NCBI RefSeq assembly: GCF_015277855.1
Contig: NZ_CP063812.1
Coordinates: 868,001 to 932,000, forward strand
Origin: Microbacterium cremeum
GTDB lineage: Bacteria > Actinomycetota > Actinomycetes > Actinomycetales > Microbacteriaceae
Reading direction: 5' to 3'
DNA length: 64,000 nt
In this document: piece by piece, positions 40,119 through 47,180 of the stretch
Layout of the letters: each line of letters begins with the position of its first letter
Position numbering within the stretch: position 1 is the stretch's first letter
Program-made: the position numbers and the translations under genes
Notes under the pieces: generated by a model
What the model was told of the DNA's origin: nothing
Databases searched by the model: none
What the model saw: only the letters and a program-made list of their open reading frames with translations

Positions 40119-40760
40119 GTGCGCAAGCCCGTCGTCGTCGTGGCGCTGACGCTCGCCGTCGCGACGGCGGGCGCGGCGGTCGCGCTCGCGGTGGCCGCCT
40201 CGAGCGGGGGAGTCCCGGATGCCGCGCCCACCGCGCCCGCATCGTCCGTGGTGCCGTCGGCGTCGGCAGCCGTGACGGCCGACGACTACTGCTACGTCGA
40301 GGCGATGATCTACTACCGCGTCGAGGAGTCCGAGCTCGCCCGGACCCTGCTGCGCAAGGAGGGGACCGCGCCGGCCGCCCGCGCGCTGGCGGACGCCGTC
40401 GCCGAGCGTGCCGTCGCCGAGCTCGACGACCTGCGTGAGTGGTACGTGTCGTGGGCCGACGCGCGTCCGGCGACGCCGCCCGCCGACGGCCTGTGCGGCG
40501 GGCACGGCGCCGACCATGCGCAGATGCCGGGCATGCCGTCGTGGAGCCGGCAGCTCGCGCTCGCCGACGCCGCACCGCCCGCCGCCGAGCGCGAGTTCAC
40601 CGGGATCCTGCGGGACCAGACCGCCGGGATGGTCGCGCTCGTCACCCTCGTGCTCGACGGCGCCCCGCACCCGGCGGTGGCGGAATCGGCACGCCGCGTG
40701 CTGGCGCACGCCGAGGCCGATCTGGCCGCGCTCGACGAGCTCGCTGCGTCATCGCCCTGA
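40119..40760 (+). CDS. Secreted DUF305-like protein lacking the metal-site histidines
   Basis: A 213-residue protein with an N-terminal signal/anchor helix (VVVVALTLAVATAGAAVALAVA) and a domain that aligns in layout with DUF305. DDYCYVEAMIYYRVEESELARTLL corresponds to CYIEGMIPHHEQALELSRLVL of the paralogue at 45979, but the His pair is Tyr-Tyr. The second His pair is replaced by QTAGMVALV. It therefore probably lacks the metal site. GTG 40119 follows GGAAGG by seven bases. It converges on the IclR gene. Confidence 0.78.
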   Translation: MRKPVVVVALTLAVATAGAAVALAVAASSGGVPDAAPTAPASSVVPSASAAVTADDYCYVEAMIYYRVEESELARTLLRKEGTAPAARALADAVAERAVAELDDLREWYVSWADARPATPPADGLCGGHGADHAQMPGMPSWSRQLALADAAPPAAEREFTGILRDQTAGMVALVTLVLDGAPHPAVAESARRVLAHAEADLAALDELAASSP

Positions 40761-43207: not shown

Positions 43208-44047
43208 GTGACCCACACACAGCACTCCCCCGGAGAGGATCCGCCGCCCGGCTCGCAGTCGCAGCGATGGGCCCGCCTCCTCACGCCGCGTGCCCTCGGC
43301 ATCGGCTCGGCCGTCGCTGCAGGCGCCGCCGCGGTCGCGCTGGTGTTCGCGACGCAGACCGCCGTCCAGGCCACCTCGTCGCCCGAGACGCCGGCCTCGA
43401 CTCCGATTGCCGCCGACAGCACCGACGAGGACGCACCCGAGAAGGCCGAGCAGATCGCCAAGCCCGCCACGATCGCCGCCGCGTACGACCAGCTCAGCGG
43501 TGCCGAGGTCGAGTACGTCCGCTTCCTCGGCGCGCAGGACCCGGCGTTCTCGACCGGACAGGACGTGTTCGGCCAGCCCGGCATGCAGTTCCTGTCGACC
43601 GACGTCGCCGACCCGCAGGCGTACGGCGACGGCCAGCGCCGGCTGCTGTCGCTCTACTACGACTACGCCACCGAAGAGACGGTCAGCATGATCGTCAACG
43701 TCACCCGCGGCGTCATCGAGGCGGTCGAGCGCGCGTCGGGCACCCAGCCCGCACCGACCGACGCCGAGACCTCGTTCGCGTGGGAGCTGCTGCTGGACTC
43801 CGACGCGGCCCAGCCCGTCGTCGACGAGTTCGCGAGCCTCACCGGCGGCTCGGTCCTCACTCCGGCCTCGGCCGAGGTCGAGCTCACGGCGCATTCCTTC
43901 GTGACGGATGCCGGAGCCTTCGGCGCCGAGGCGTGCGGCGTCGACCGGTGCGTGCAGCTGCTGGCCCAGGTCGACGGCGGCGCGTTCCTCACCACCAGCA
44001 CCTTCGTCGTCAACCTGTCGACCCGAGAAGTCCTGACCATCTCATGA
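43208..44047 (+). CDS. Membrane-anchored copper amine oxidase N2/N3-domain-like protein
   Basis: A 279-residue protein. Its cytoplasmic N-terminus is followed by one transmembrane helix (about residues 33-55) and an exported domain. RRLLSLYYDYATEETVSMIV, then a stretch with QPAPTDAETSFAWELLLDSD, and the closing VVNLSTREVLTIS resemble the N2/N3 domains that precede the catalytic domain of copper amine oxidases. The next gene encodes just such a catalytic domain. GTG 43208 is chosen because AAAGG lies six bases upstream. Its stop overlaps a possible start of the oxidase gene (ATGA). I recognise the domain by pattern only, so an independent role is possible. Confidence 0.65.
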   Translation: MTHTQHSPGEDPPPGSQSQRWARLLTPRALGIGSAVAAGAAAVALVFATQTAVQATSSPETPASTPIAADSTDEDAPEKAEQIAKPATIAAAYDQLSGAEVEYVRFLGAQDPAFSTGQDVFGQPGMQFLSTDVADPQAYGDGQRRLLSLYYDYATEETVSMIVNVTRGVIEAVERASGTQPAPTDAETSFAWELLLDSDAAQPVVDEFASLTGGSVLTPASAEVELTAHSFVTDAGAFGAEACGVDRCVQLLAQVDGGAFLTTSTFVVNLSTREVLTIS

Positions 44048-44064
44048 CCATGGAGAACACCCAC

Positions 44065-45909
44065 ATGAAACGAACCCCCCTTCGGCGGGTCTTCGGCGCC
44101 GGCCTGGCGATGGCCGTCCTCGCCGGCGGACTCGTCCTGTCCGCCCCGGCCGCCGCCTCCGCGCAGACCGTCACCGAGGCCTCCTGCTCCGGCGACTCGC
44201 TCGTCTCGGAGACCCTCGAGTCCGGGTCGAGCTGGCAGATGTGCTGGCGCATCGACTCGTACCGCGGCCTCGTGCTCGACAAGATCGCGTACCAGCCGCG
44301 CGACGACGCCGCGCCGATCCTCGTGCTCGACTCGATCGCCCTCGCGCAGCTGAACGTGCCGTACGACACCGGCGCGACCGAGTACAACGACGTCACCACC
44401 TACCAGGTGGGCGGCCGTCGGCTGCAGGCGATCGAGGCCGTCGACTGCCCGGTCGGCGAGGTGCGCGCGTCGTGGGTCGACGCGACGCGCGGAGTGATCC
44501 CGGCCGTCTGCATCGGCGAGGAGGACTCGGGCCTGGCGTATCGCTCGAACATCGCGCGGGACGCGCTGTATGCCGCCCAGGGCACCGACCTCGTGCTCCA
44601 CTCGGTGTCGCGCATCGGCTGGTACGAGTACCAGACCGAGTACCGGTTCCACGACGACGGCGAGATCTCGGTGCGCCTCGGCGCCACCGGCGACCTGTCG
44701 CCCAACGACTACGTGAACGTCGTCAACCACGGGTGGCCGCTCGCACCGGGCCAGGAGGACTTCGCGGTCAACCACTACCACTCCGCGTTCTGGCGCGTGG
44801 ACTTCGGCCTCGACTCCGGCACCAGCCAGATCGTCGAGAAGTTCGCGACCACGCACACGGGCGAGCACGGCACGACCGGCGACACCGGTCACACCGCCAT
44901 CCTCGACACCCAGATCACGCCGGTCACCACCGAGACCAAGACGATGGGGGCGAACCGCGAGGCCTACCGCGTGGTCAACCCCGAGAGCCTCAACGCGGAC
45001 GGCCACGCCCGTTCGTACGAGATCATCGTGCCGCGCGACCAGGCGTACAACCTCAACCCCGAGACCGACTACGACATCGCGTTCACCAACGCCAAGTCGG
45101 ACGAGCTGCACGCGAGCTACAACCTCATCCCGTCCAAGGCGGGGCAGATGGTGACGGACTACATCGCCGACGCCGAGTCGCTCACCGACCCGGTGGCGTG
45201 GGTGAACGTGGGCTTCCACCACATCAACCGCGATGAGGACCAGAGCCCCATGCCGATCCACTGGCAGGGCTTCACGCTCTACCCGCGGGACTTCGCCGCT
45301 CAGGCGCCGAACATCCCCGAGGGCCGCAAGTGGGTCAACGGCGACATGCGCGGGGTGCCGAACCCCAACATCACGCCCATGCCCACCGCGTCGCCGACGC
45401 CGACTCCGACGACCGAGCCGACGGCGCAGCCGACGACCGAGCCGACCACCGAGCCGACGACCGGGCCGACCGCGGAGCCCACCCCGGACGTCGCCTCGGT
45501 GACGTTCGGCCACGCCGAGGTCGCTCCGGGAGGGACGCAGACGGCGACGGCGGGCGGTTTCGCCCCGGGCGAGACCGTGAGCGCCGTGCTGCACTCCGAC
45601 CCGGTCGACGTCGGGACGTTCCTCGCCGATGACGAGGGAGTGGTGACCGCGCAGTTCATCGTCCCGTCCGACACGTCCCCCGGCGAGCACACGCTGGTGC
45701 TGACCGGGCAGACGTCGTCAGCGGTCGCGCAGGGCACCTTCATGGTGGCAGCCGCTTCGCCGTCCGCGATCCTCGGAGCGCTGGCGACGACGGGCACCGA
45801 CGCGAACCGGTGGCTGCTGTCGGGCCTCGTGCTGCTGGTCGCCGGTGCCGGTCTCGCGGGCACCGCGTGGTACCAGCGGCGTCAGCAGGCAGCCAGGGCG
45901 CACGCCTGA
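44065..45909 (+). CDS. Copper amine oxidase catalytic domain, secreted, with LATTG sorting signal
   Basis: A 614-residue secreted protein. The signal peptide spans residues 1-31. The amine oxidase core includes RGLVLDKIAYQPRDDAAPIL. Copper ligands are HYH in NHYHSAFWRVDFG and His in HHINRDEDQSPMP. The cofactor-precursor Tyr is in IGWYEYQTEYRF and the catalytic-base Asp in EYNDVTTYQ. A Pro/Thr linker and a small beta-rich domain follow, then LATTG, a hydrophobic helix and a basic tail, as in class E sortase substrates. It would oxidise amines to aldehydes on the cell wall. ATG 44065 has GGAG nine bases upstream; ATG 44044, overlapping the previous stop, is the alternative. The Asn normally before the cofactor Tyr is Trp here. 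Confidence 0.82.
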   Translation: MKRTPLRRVFGAGLAMAVLAGGLVLSAPAAASAQTVTEASCSGDSLVSETLESGSSWQMCWRIDSYRGLVLDKIAYQPRDDAAPILVLDSIALAQLNVPYDTGATEYNDVTTYQVGGRRLQAIEAVDCPVGEVRASWVDATRGVIPAVCIGEEDSGLAYRSNIARDALYAAQGTDLVLHSVSRIGWYEYQTEYRFHDDGEISVRLGATGDLSPNDYVNVVNHGWPLAPGQEDFAVNHYHSAFWRVDFGLDSGTSQIVEKFATTHTGEHGTTGDTGHTAILDTQITPVTTETKTMGANREAYRVVNPESLNADGHARSYEIIVPRDQAYNLNPETDYDIAFTNAKSDELHASYNLIPSKAGQMVTDYIADAESLTDPVAWVNVGFHHINRDEDQSPMPIHWQGFTLYPRDFAAQAPNIPEGRKWVNGDMRGVPNPNITPMPTASPTPTPTTEPTAQPTTEPTTEPTTGPTAEPTPDVASVTFGHAEVAPGGTQTATAGGFAPGETVSAVLHSDPVDVGTFLADDEGVVTAQFIVPSDTSPGEHTLVLTGQTSSAVAQGTFMVAAASPSAILGALATTGTDANRWLLSGLVLLVAGAGLAGTAWYQRRQQAARAHA

Positions 45910-45978: not shown

Positions 45979-46656
45979 ATGCGCAACCGGATCGCCGCCC
46001 TCGGCGTCGTGCTCGCCGCGACGACAGGGCTCGCTGCGGCGGCCGTCGTGACGCTCGGTGCGACCACGTCGGTCGCGTCGGCTCCGCAGGCGGCGGCGCA
46101 GCGGGCGACGGATGCCGCGACCGCCGTCTTCCCGACCCTCGAGGACCACTGCTACATCGAGGGCATGATCCCGCATCACGAGCAGGCGCTCGAGCTCAGC
46201 CGGCTCGTGCTCGATGCGGCCGGCGTGCGCGAGCGGACGCGGGCGCTGGCCGAGTTCATCGTCGCCGACCAGACCGCCGAGATCGGGACGATGCGGGCCT
46301 GGCAGGACGCGTGGCGGCGCGCGATGCCGGCCGAGGGGACCGGTGCCGGGCACGCCGGCGGCGCGCACGCCGGCCCGGCGGCAGTCGTGACGGGATGCGG
46401 CGACCACGGGCACGCCGAGATGAAGGGCATGGCCACCCCGGCGCAGCTCGCGGCGCTCGCGGCGGCCGAGGGCGAGGCCGCGGACCGCATGTTCCTCGAG
46501 CTCATGATCGTGCACCACGAGGGCGCGCTCGAGATGGGGGAGCGCGCGGTGCGGTACGGGTCCAACGCCTTCGTGCGCACGTCGGGCAAGCACGTGCTCG
46601 TCGAACAGGAGCGGGAGATCTCCGCGATGACGGCCCTCCTCGCGGAGGCGCCGTGA
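45979..46656 (+). CDS. Secreted DUF305-family protein
   Basis: A 225-residue exported protein with an N-terminal signal helix (IAALGVVLAATTGLAAAAVVTLG) and a full DUF305 domain: GMIPHHEQALELSRLV and LMIVHHEGALEMGERAV, both His pairs intact, with an inserted His/Gly-rich loop (GHAGGAHAG). A surface metal-binding role, perhaps for copper, is inferred; the amine oxidase upstream needs copper. AAGGGA precedes ATG 45979. It overlaps the signal peptidase gene by four bases. Confidence 0.87.
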   Translation: MRNRIAALGVVLAATTGLAAAAVVTLGATTSVASAPQAAAQRATDAATAVFPTLEDHCYIEGMIPHHEQALELSRLVLDAAGVRERTRALAEFIVADQTAEIGTMRAWQDAWRRAMPAEGTGAGHAGGAHAGPAAVVTGCGDHGHAEMKGMATPAQLAALAAAEGEAADRMFLELMIVHHEGALEMGERAVRYGSNAFVRTSGKHVLVEQEREISAMTALLAEAP

Positions 46657-47180
46657 TCGCGGCCCCGCGTCGCCGGGCGCTGCGGTCGGCTGCGGCCGTG
46701 CTCGCGCCCCTGGTCGCGGCGGGTCTGATCCTCGCGGCGTTCGGGGTGGCGACCGTGCGCAACGACTCGATGACCCCGACGCTGCGCAGCGGCGACCTCG
46801 TCGTGTTCGACCGGTGGACGCCTCCGGCACGCGGGGACATCGTGCTGCTGAGCGACCGTCAGGGCTGGTCGGGCGAGGTCGGCGCCCTCCTCGTCAAGCG
46901 CGTCGTCGGCATCGCCGGCGACGTCGTGGTGTGCTGCGAGACCGGGAGCGGCCGCCTCGTCGTCAACGGCGAGGCGGTCGACGAGGAGTATGCCGCAGGC
47001 TCGCGCCCCGGCGGCGACATCCCGTTCCGGGTGACGGTGCCCCGCGGCGCGGTCTGGGTCATGGGCGACAACCGCGCGGCGTCGGCCGACTCCCGCGCGT
47101 CGGTGTCGTCTCCCGATCACGGTGCGGTGACGAGCGAGCAGCTGCGGGGGACCGTGCGTGCGTGGTGGAGCGGGTGGTGA
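46653..47180 (+). CDS. lepB: Type I signal peptidase
   Basis: A 175-residue S26A signal peptidase with one N-terminal transmembrane helix. The catalytic Ser39 is in VRNDSMTPTL and the catalytic Lys82 in LLVKRVVGIAGD. The later box VMGDNRAASADSR is also present. It removes signal peptides from exported proteins. GTG 46653 overlaps the DUF305 stop codon (GTGA), so it is in the surface-protein operon rather than with housekeeping genes. It may be a dedicated processing enzyme. Confidence 0.9.
   Translation: MIAAPRRRALRSAAAVLAPLVAAGLILAAFGVATVRNDSMTPTLRSGDLVVFDRWTPPARGDIVLLSDRQGWSGEVGALLVKRVVGIAGDVVVCCETGSGRLVVNGEAVDEEYAAGSRPGGDIPFRVTVPRGAVWVMGDNRAASADSRASVSSPDHGAVTSEQLRGTVRAWWSGW

What the first reader, a model, noticed from the sequence alone, without database searches (positions are those of the whole stretch)
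43208..45909. Copper amine oxidase apparently split into a membrane-bound N2/N3 part and a wall-anchored catalytic part
The protein at 43208 ends with a pattern that looks like the end of the N3 domain (VVNLSTREVLTIS). The next gene begins, after a signal peptide, with the catalytic domain. In known enzymes these are one chain. Here each part has its own surface targeting: a transmembrane helix for the first, and a signal peptide plus LATTG sorting signal for the second. Assembly would have to take place outside the membrane.
Basis: partly seen in the sequence, partly recalled or inferred. Interest (0 to 1): 0.75.

Follow-up and report, generated by a model that had tools for sequence, protein, structure and literature searches.

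The report
Copper amine oxidase in two genes
A probably exported copper enzyme that in known cases is one protein chain is here encoded by two adjacent genes, a small helper-domain protein and a catalytic protein, and related bacteria keep the same pair with an unusual motif around the tyrosine that should become the cofactor.

Summary
Gene 1 (43208-44047) is a 279-aa protein with one hydrophobic segment. Gene 2 (44044-45909, ATGA overlap) is a Cu_amine_oxid catalytic domain that starts directly after a signal peptide. Gene 1 is the N2/N3 (D2/D3) part: its family profile aligns with the N-terminal 190 residues of one-chain enzymes (E 6.8e-12); all 37 members scanned match NCBIfam 'primary-amine oxidase' at E<=1 (best 7.1e-6); and all 50 Foldseek PDB hits of its AlphaFold2 model at E<=0.001 are copper amine oxidases.

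The split is old. Of 83 distinct catalytic genes (Microbacteriaceae, Jiangella, Micromonosporaceae, Streptomyces, Nonomuraea, Solirubrobacter and others), 82 have the partner directly upstream; none of 41 one-chain loci has one.

New here: copper histidines and cofactor tyrosine are kept, but the TPQ consensus T-x-x-N-Y is changed (Thr lost in 83/83, Asn to Trp in 80/83; one-chain controls keep both in 40/40).

Best reading: a secreted two-subunit copper amine oxidase assembled outside the membrane. Assembly, TPQ formation and activity are inferred. Membrane retention of gene 1 is unproven; wall anchoring is a Microbacteriaceae feature. Eight paper searches listed no description of such an enzyme.

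The parts
43208..44047 (+). Gene 1 (UP): N2/N3 (D2/D3) subunit, 279 aa
43295..43351 (+). hydrophobic segment of UP (residues 30-48): signal anchor or signal peptide, undecided
   Evidence: model helix 30-48; 44 of 45 relatives examined have a 19-residue stretch with mean Kyte-Doolittle value of at least 1.6 near the N-terminus, the other is cut by a contig end
43499..43738 (+). N2-like (D2) domain, residues 98-177: helices then four strands
   Evidence: model; hhalign of the N2 part alone, score 79.7, P 1.5e-12
43760..44038 (+). N3-like (D3) domain, residues 185-277: helices then four strands, with invariant C243 and C248
   Evidence: model; Foldseek alignments of 198-215 columns; cysteines; sequence alone only just above shuffles
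44044..45909 (+). Gene 2 (CAT): catalytic (D4) subunit, ATGA overlap with gene 1; alternative start ATG 44065
44065..44154 (+). signal peptide region of CAT
   Evidence: sequence; hydrophobic N-termini in relatives
44167..45336 (+). D4 catalytic domain of CAT (residues 42-431)
   Evidence: AlphaFold2 model; Foldseek AGAO E 1.7e-25
44389..44391 (+). Asp116, equivalent of the catalytic base
   Evidence: alignment with one-chain enzymes
44620..44625 (+). Trp193-Tyr194: Trp in place of the conserved Asn, then the TPQ precursor Tyr
   Evidence: papers read in passages
44773..44781 (+). His244-x-His246, copper ligands by alignment
45220..45222 (+). His393, third copper ligand by alignment
45490..45747 (+). 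Ig-like beta domain (residues 483-568)
   Evidence: strands in the model; the name is my reading
45781..45909 (+). LATTG sorting signal with transmembrane helix and basic tail
   Evidence: sequence; helix 586-614; NCBIfam LAXTG_small_WW 1.5e-4, below its cut-off; two sortase loci in the genome
45979..46656 (+). DUF305 protein, CopM-like copper metallochaperone candidate, possible accessory
   Evidence: Pfam DUF305 1.1e-38; NCBIfam CopM 9.3e-25, 86.4 bits against a cut-off of 90; downstream in 25 of 47 loci

Best explanation
This is a two-subunit, exported copper amine oxidase. UP carries the D2 and D3 domains and CAT carries the D4 catalytic domain. Both are probably translated from one coupled message and exported separately. 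CAT folds outside the membrane, takes up copper (possibly from the neighbouring DUF305 protein) and processes Tyr194 to topaquinone. UP packs on D4 and forms part of the amine channel, giving an expected UP2-CAT2 assembly that oxidises amines to aldehyde, ammonia and hydrogen peroxide. In Microbacteriaceae the catalytic chain is then linked to the wall by a sortase. Shown: homology and predicted fold of both parts, conserved adjacency, conserved copper and base residues, changed TPQ motif. Inferred: export, the complex, its stoichiometry, TPQ formation, activity, copper delivery, wall linkage.
For: UP profile aligns colinearly with N2+N3 of one-chain enzymes (scores 71.1 and 80.8; best of 100 column shuffles 19.6 and 19.2; one-chain catalytic part as control 16.5 and 16.4). 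37 of 37 UP members match NCBIfam primary-amine oxidase at E<=1 (best 7.1e-6, window protein 0.12); of the other six families listed none is matched by more than one member. Foldseek: 50 of 50 PDB hits at E<=0.001 are copper amine oxidases. CAT: Cu_amine_oxid, AGAO at E 1.7e-25. UP directly upstream of CAT in 105 of 106 loci, 82 of 83 distinct genes; 0 of 41 one-chain loci show a separate UP. Distances in the UP and CAT trees correlate at r 0.933 against a maximum of 0.108 in 1000 permutations. Three genomes with two copies keep type-matched pairs. Cu-ligand histidines and Tyr 83 of 83, base Asp 82 of 83 plus one gap.
Against: One distinct CAT (L114, genome G563) looks like a lipoprotein, has no UP beside it and no UP match better than E 0.13 in its genome, so the catalytic part may manage alone there. 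No complex was predicted. N3 by sequence alone is near the shuffle maximum (19.7 vs 18.0; 21.1 vs 20.5, the latter over 17 columns only). The Pfam N3 model does not find UP in this genome, and in a Pfam scan of 37 members AGAO-like_N2 is matched by 4, no more than two unrelated families. hmmsearch of the UP profiles against PDB sequences found no amine oxidase. UP/CAT co-variation is confounded by species history. The altered TPQ motif leaves it open whether TPQ forms. Foldseek rmsd of 4.5-6.8 A may mean that D2 and D3 are arranged differently in the lone model.
Confidence: 0.8

Rival explanations
1. UP descends from N2/N3 but now acts as a dedicated chaperone, maturation factor or inhibitor of CAT and is not part of the finished enzyme.
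For: UP has its own membrane or signal segment, and one CAT lives without it.
Against: In known enzymes D2 and D3 lie on D4, and D3 with D4 borders the active-site cavity (passages of PMC5794975). The pairing is nearly strict (82 of 83).
Confidence: 0.13
2. Sequencing or annotation artefact: a one-chain gene broken by a frameshift.
For: Adjacent frames and a 4-base overlap.
Against: CAT has its own signal peptide, and the same layout is found in 82 of 83 distinct genes across several orders.
Confidence: 0.01
3. UP is unrelated to amine oxidases and only shares the operon.
For: No ordinary hit for single members in Pfam or PDB sequences, and none for the profile in PDB sequences; the Pfam N3 model misses it.
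Against. The UP profile also finds N2 inside one-chain enzymes: 9 of 13 above HMMER's inclusion threshold in a 13-sequence search, best E 1.2e-8, though only 2 of 41 at E<1e-5 in the large ORF set.
Confidence: 0.02

Closest known systems
Copper amine oxidase, AGAO / NF008559 primary-amine oxidase type
   Same: D2, D3 and D4 all present in the same order; three Cu histidines, base Asp, a Tyr corresponding to AGAO Y284 and two D4 cysteines conserved (that these two cysteines form a disulfide in AGAO is recalled)
   Different: Two chains, both with signal sequences; linker between D3 and D4 largely lost; Thr and Asn of the TPQ consensus replaced; extra conserved cysteines C48 and C67 in CAT and C243 and C248 in UP
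E. coli amine oxidase (ECAO), a D1-D4 single chain with solved structures
   Same: Its solved chains match both models; that it is exported is recalled
   Different: One chain with an extra D1 domain (PMC3382800, passage)
Split-gene transketolase of Carboxydothermus (PMC7661550, start of the abstract seen in the listing)
   Same: An enzyme usually one chain reconstituted from two encoded chains
   Different: Different enzyme family

Membership tests
Copper amine oxidase (CAT) | Cu_amine_oxid catalytic domain above the Pfam cut-off | tested here: met
   134.9 bits against 27
Copper amine oxidase (CAT) | three Cu-ligand histidines | tested here: met
   H244, H246, H393 in 83 of 83
Copper amine oxidase (CAT) | TPQ precursor Tyr and catalytic-base Asp | tested here: met
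   Tyr 83 of 83; Asp 82 of 83 plus one gap
[quoted passage not shown]
   Thr 0 of 83, Asn 3 of 83 (Trp 80); both 40 of 40 in one-chain controls. Window protein: R-I-G-W-Y-E-Y
Copper amine oxidase (UP) | D2 domain similarity | tested here: met
Copper amine oxidase (UP) | D3 domain similarity | tested here: met
   fold repeat and Foldseek alignments of 198-215 columns; sequence of this half alone inconclusive and Pfam N3 model does not find it
Copper amine oxidase (whole) | D2-D3-D4 in a single chain | tested here: not met
   the N-terminal part is a separate upstream frame in 82 of 83 distinct relatives
Copper amine oxidase (whole) | dimer; amine oxidation with TPQ | not testable with these tools
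   needs expression, size analysis and spectroscopy
Sortase substrate (CAT) | LxxTG motif, hydrophobic helix, basic tail at the C-terminus | tested here: met
   LATTG, helix 586-614, RRQ tail (sequence); NCBIfam sorting models below cut-off

The most novel reading that the evidence does not exclude
The split and the altered motif belong together. This clade builds its cofactor site without the Asn (and Thr) of the one-chain enzymes, and uses a separately exported, exchangeable D2/D3 subunit and perhaps a dedicated copper chaperone to complete maturation outside the cell. The cofactor may be a TPQ that behaves differently, or another Tyr- or Trp/Tyr-derived redox centre.
Probability: 0.2. Interest if true: 0.82.

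Novelty: new variant of a known kind. Interest (0 to 1): 0.64.

Why it matters
A 2012 review states that all copper amine oxidases structurally characterised by then are homodimers of 70-80 kDa chains (PMC3382800, passages). A natural two-chain version makes the role of D2/D3 directly testable: does D4 alone make its cofactor, and does the outer subunit gate the substrate channel? The clade also lacks the Asn whose change to Ala in AGAO slows TPQ formation 180-fold and turnover 160-fold (PMC9491219, passages). It is therefore a natural experiment on cofactor control, and if active it puts an H2O2- and aldehyde-producing enzyme on the outside of many actinobacteria.

Tried and rejected
Frameshift artefact: rejected. 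Single-sequence searches of UP against PDB and Pfam gave nothing useful, and the full-length UP profile against PDB sequences gave three weak hits to unrelated proteins. The core profile gave no PDB-sequence hit at E<=10. In a Pfam scan of the 37 UP members at E<=10, AGAO-like_N2 was matched by 4 (best 0.026), as were PT-TG and DUF2613. Two of the 26 genomes reported with UP (G218, G172; L026, L027) are taken as false: the printed ORFs do not look like UP and show no UP-profile hit at E 1e-5. Tat export of CAT was considered: the RR of the window protein is not kept in several relatives, so Sec is assumed. An interchain disulfide was considered; the conserved cysteines are even in number in each chain, so none is needed, but no distances were measured. 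No UP on plasmids at E<=0.01. A Streptomyces CAT matches 89 plasmid records; the 20 listed are at most 26.7% identical and are unannotated, or named hypothetical protein, primary-amine oxidase or tyramine oxidase; not examined further. Eight paper searches listed no paper whose title or abstract start describes a two-chain copper amine oxidase. Four of the lists were capped: 20 of 283 (23), 20 of 1,506 (45), 20 of 325 (52), 10 of 68 (73).

Rows dropped: A1 used 37 of 46 available UP sequences (window plus 45) and A2 36 of 46 CAT sequences; near-duplicates, uncertain starts and contig-edge copies were left out. L061 and L074 were left out and of these alignments. The pair tree used 81 of the 82 distinct pairs. 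The one-chain N-part profile used 39 sequences of the 40 distinct. In one search the DUF305 count was 22 of 47; three more (L050, L056, L061) were added by hand, because the untrimmed profile had placed their start inside an overlap. L043 ends at its contig edge; L065 has its DUF305 upstream instead and is not counted.
Full report
WHAT IS THERE. Gene 1 (UP, 43208-44047) encodes 279 aa: a leader of about 29 residues with basic residues, one hydrophobic segment, a proline/acidic linker and a compact C-terminal part of about 190 residues. Gene 2 (CAT) overlaps it by ATGA (start ATG 44044; a second in-frame ATG at 44065 begins the signal peptide proper) and ends at 45909. CAT matches Pfam Cu_amine_oxid at 4.7e-39 over residues 63-423 and nothing N-terminal of it. 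It then has a PT-rich linker, an Ig-like domain and a LATTG sorting signal. The genome has two sortase-family loci. It also holds a separate, ordinary one-chain amine oxidase at 2.90 Mb with its own N3 domain.

IS UP REALLY N2/N3? Single-model searches are nearly blind. UP gives no amine-oxidase hit in Pfam at E<=1; the Pfam N3 model, run on the whole genome, finds only the one-chain gene; in a scan of 37 members at E<=10, AGAO-like_N2 is matched by 4 (best E 0.026), as are two unrelated families. Family-level tests are clear. hhalign of the UP core against one-chain enzymes gives probability 96.9, E 1.9e-10, score 71.1, aligned to their positions 3-187, while CAT aligns to positions 235-617 of the same 664-position profile. 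Controls: best of 100 column shuffles 19.6, reversed 10.0, one-chain catalytic part 16.5. With 81 UP and 39 one-chain sequences the score is 80.8, E 6.8e-12, shuffle maximum 19.2, catalytic-part control 16.4. Most of this is the N2 half (61.7 and 79.7). The N3 half alone scores 19.7 against a shuffle maximum of 18.0, and 21.1 (over only 17 columns) against 20.5, so sequence alone does not prove N3. All 37 UP cores match NCBIfam NF008559 primary-amine oxidase at E<=1 (best 7.1e-6; the window protein 0.12, far below the model's whole-protein cut-off); each of the other six families is matched by one member. The AlphaFold2 model of UP is confident over the core (183 residues with pLDDT>=90) and shows, as I read it, two repeats of helices followed by four strands. 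A 2012 review describes D2 and D3 as related alpha/beta domains of about 100 residues (PMC3382800, passages). Foldseek against the PDB: 50 hits at E<=0.001, all 50 copper amine oxidases, 198-215 aligned columns, TM-score by query length 0.39-0.47, rmsd 4.5-6.8 A. hmmsearch against PDB sequences found no amine oxidase.

CAT ALONE IS D4. The model of CAT is ordered from about residue 42, right after the signal peptide. Its best PDB match is AGAO, E 1.7e-25 over 420 columns; the 50 rows listed, of 113 at E<=0.001, are all copper amine oxidases.

HOW WIDESPREAD. The search for related loci returned 47 loci; all 47 have UP directly upstream. They belong to Microbacterium, Agromyces, Compostimonas, Jiangella, Phytohabitans, Plantactinospora, Actinoplanes, Actinomadura, Motilibacter, Streptomyces, Actinacidiphila, Nonomuraea, Solirubrobacter and one unnamed Microbacteriaceae bin. 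In the window's genus, UP was reported in 26 of 366 genomes; two are taken as false, leaving 24, with 27 copies, each with CAT beside it. In 296 genomes drawn from the class, 31 matched a CAT query; 30 were fetched as loci and 29 of these have UP adjacent. The remaining match (G656, E 8e-21) was not fetched. Pooled, 106 split-type CAT loci (83 distinct) include 105 (82 distinct) with UP directly upstream, -27 to 370 nt between the end of the UP match and the CAT core. Of 41 one-chain loci (40 distinct) none shows a separate UP (score above 50) within the stretch fetched; 40 of the 41 have at least 244 residues before the catalytic core in the same frame, and L131 has 41. CAT-profile scores fall in two bands: 85-126 for one-chain loci and above 300 for split ones, 372.6 or more in those printed. 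In a phylum sample of 396 genomes (37 with a match), Pfam scores are equally bimodal: 33 places at 482.8 bits or more, 6 at 130-146, 4 fragments below 31. Distances in the UP and CAT trees correlate at r 0.933 for 81 pairs; the maximum of 1000 permutations is 0.108, though shared species history inflates this. Three genomes (G019, G211, G388) hold two cassettes of different type, each with its matching partner. Split CATs form one clade against the one-chain sequences (support 0.914, unrooted).

THE EXCEPTION. L114 (genome G563) has a CAT with a lipoprotein-like signal and no UP next to it; a search of that genome found none (best E 0.13). So UP can be lost, or is very diverged there.

THE ALTERED COFACTOR MOTIF. 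In 83 distinct split CATs the Tyr, both HxH histidines and the third histidine are conserved in 83, the base Asp in 82 with one gap. Thr of the TPQ consensus is present in 0 of 83 (R, K, Q or A instead). Asn is replaced by Trp in 80 of 83 and kept in 3 (two Solirubrobacter and L025, which matches the contig length of Microbacterium sp. 5K110, L065). The one-chain controls have both in 40 of 40 (first seen in 36 against 12). The review calls this Asn strictly conserved and reports 5-10% TPQ in HPAO N404A. In AGAO N381A, TPQ still forms but 180-fold more slowly, with kcat down 160-fold (PMC9491219, abstract and passages). So loss of Asn need not abolish TPQ, but a whole clade with Trp there is unexpected.

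NEIGHBOURS. Downstream lies a DUF305 protein resembling CopM copper metallochaperones, found on the same strand after CAT in 25 of 47 loci (22 by script, 3 by inspection). None was found in the flanks held for the Streptomyces, Actinacidiphila, Solirubrobacter and Nonomuraea pairs. An amino-acid permease and an IclR regulator are divergently placed upstream in 20 and 21 of 47. A signal peptidase I follows DUF305 in the window. This suggests, without proving, that the cassette is regulated with amine or amino-acid uptake and has its own copper supply in part of the clade.

MECHANISM. The best reading is an exported heteromeric amine oxidase assembled outside the membrane. Papers on one-chain enzymes describe D2 and D3 as lying on the surface of D4, and a peptide docked in the active-site cavity contacts residues of D3 and D4 (PMC5794975, passages), so UP would complete the channel. 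Membrane retention of UP is undecided: the leader could be a signal anchor or be cleaved at an A-x-A site (my reading of the sequence; no signal-peptide predictor was run). Wall anchoring is seen in the Microbacteriaceae CATs aligned, except L065; Streptomyces CATs end after the catalytic domain.

MEMBERSHIP. Two features of the known family were tested and not met: the single chain and the full TPQ consensus. I therefore file this as a new variant of the copper amine oxidase kind, not as an ordinary member, while holding that it most likely works like one.

LITERATURE. Eight searches of open-licence papers listed none that describes a two-chain copper amine oxidase; four lists were capped and subscription journals are mostly not covered. 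Of the papers cited I read passages only (PMC3382800, PMC5794975, PMC9491219) or the listing (PMC7661550).

Noticed in passing
window 44611-44631: TPQ motif R-I-G-W-Y-E-Y: the Thr of the consensus is replaced in 83 of 83 and the Asn in 80 of 83 distinct split-type genes, with Cu ligands intact.
   Followed up: yes
L114 (genome G563): A split-type catalytic protein with a lipoprotein-like signal and no N2/N3 partner found in its genome.
   Followed up: partly
L061:4770-6256: In Phytohabitans suffuscus the catalytic gene is spread over two reading frames in the public assembly; a real lesion or a sequencing error. Not mended.
   Followed up: no
L052 and L054: Two assemblies of Solirubrobacter CPCC 204708: in L052 the UP frame runs on past the usual end and into the CAT region, in L054 it ends normally, so one assembly probably has an error.
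   Followed up: no
window 45979-46656 and 40119-40760: Two DUF305 genes flank the region; the downstream one is CopM-like and a DUF305 gene follows the pair in 25 of 47 loci.
   Followed up: partly
window 46659-47180: A signal peptidase I gene follows the DUF305 gene, perhaps part of the same operon.
   Followed up: no
L058, L059 and L076 flanks: In L058 and L059 (Actinacidiphila, Streptomyces) a SAV2148-like HEPN protein gene follows the pair, and in L076 (Nonomuraea) a glycogen-branching-enzyme-like gene, a setting unlike that in Microbacteriaceae.
   Followed up: no
UP residues 243-248; CAT residues 48 and 67: Clade-specific cysteines: C-x4-C in the N3-like domain (37 of 37 aligned) and a pair at the start of D4 (C67 82 of 83, C48 78 of 83, the rest gaps), not cysteine in the one-chain enzymes.
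   Followed up: partly
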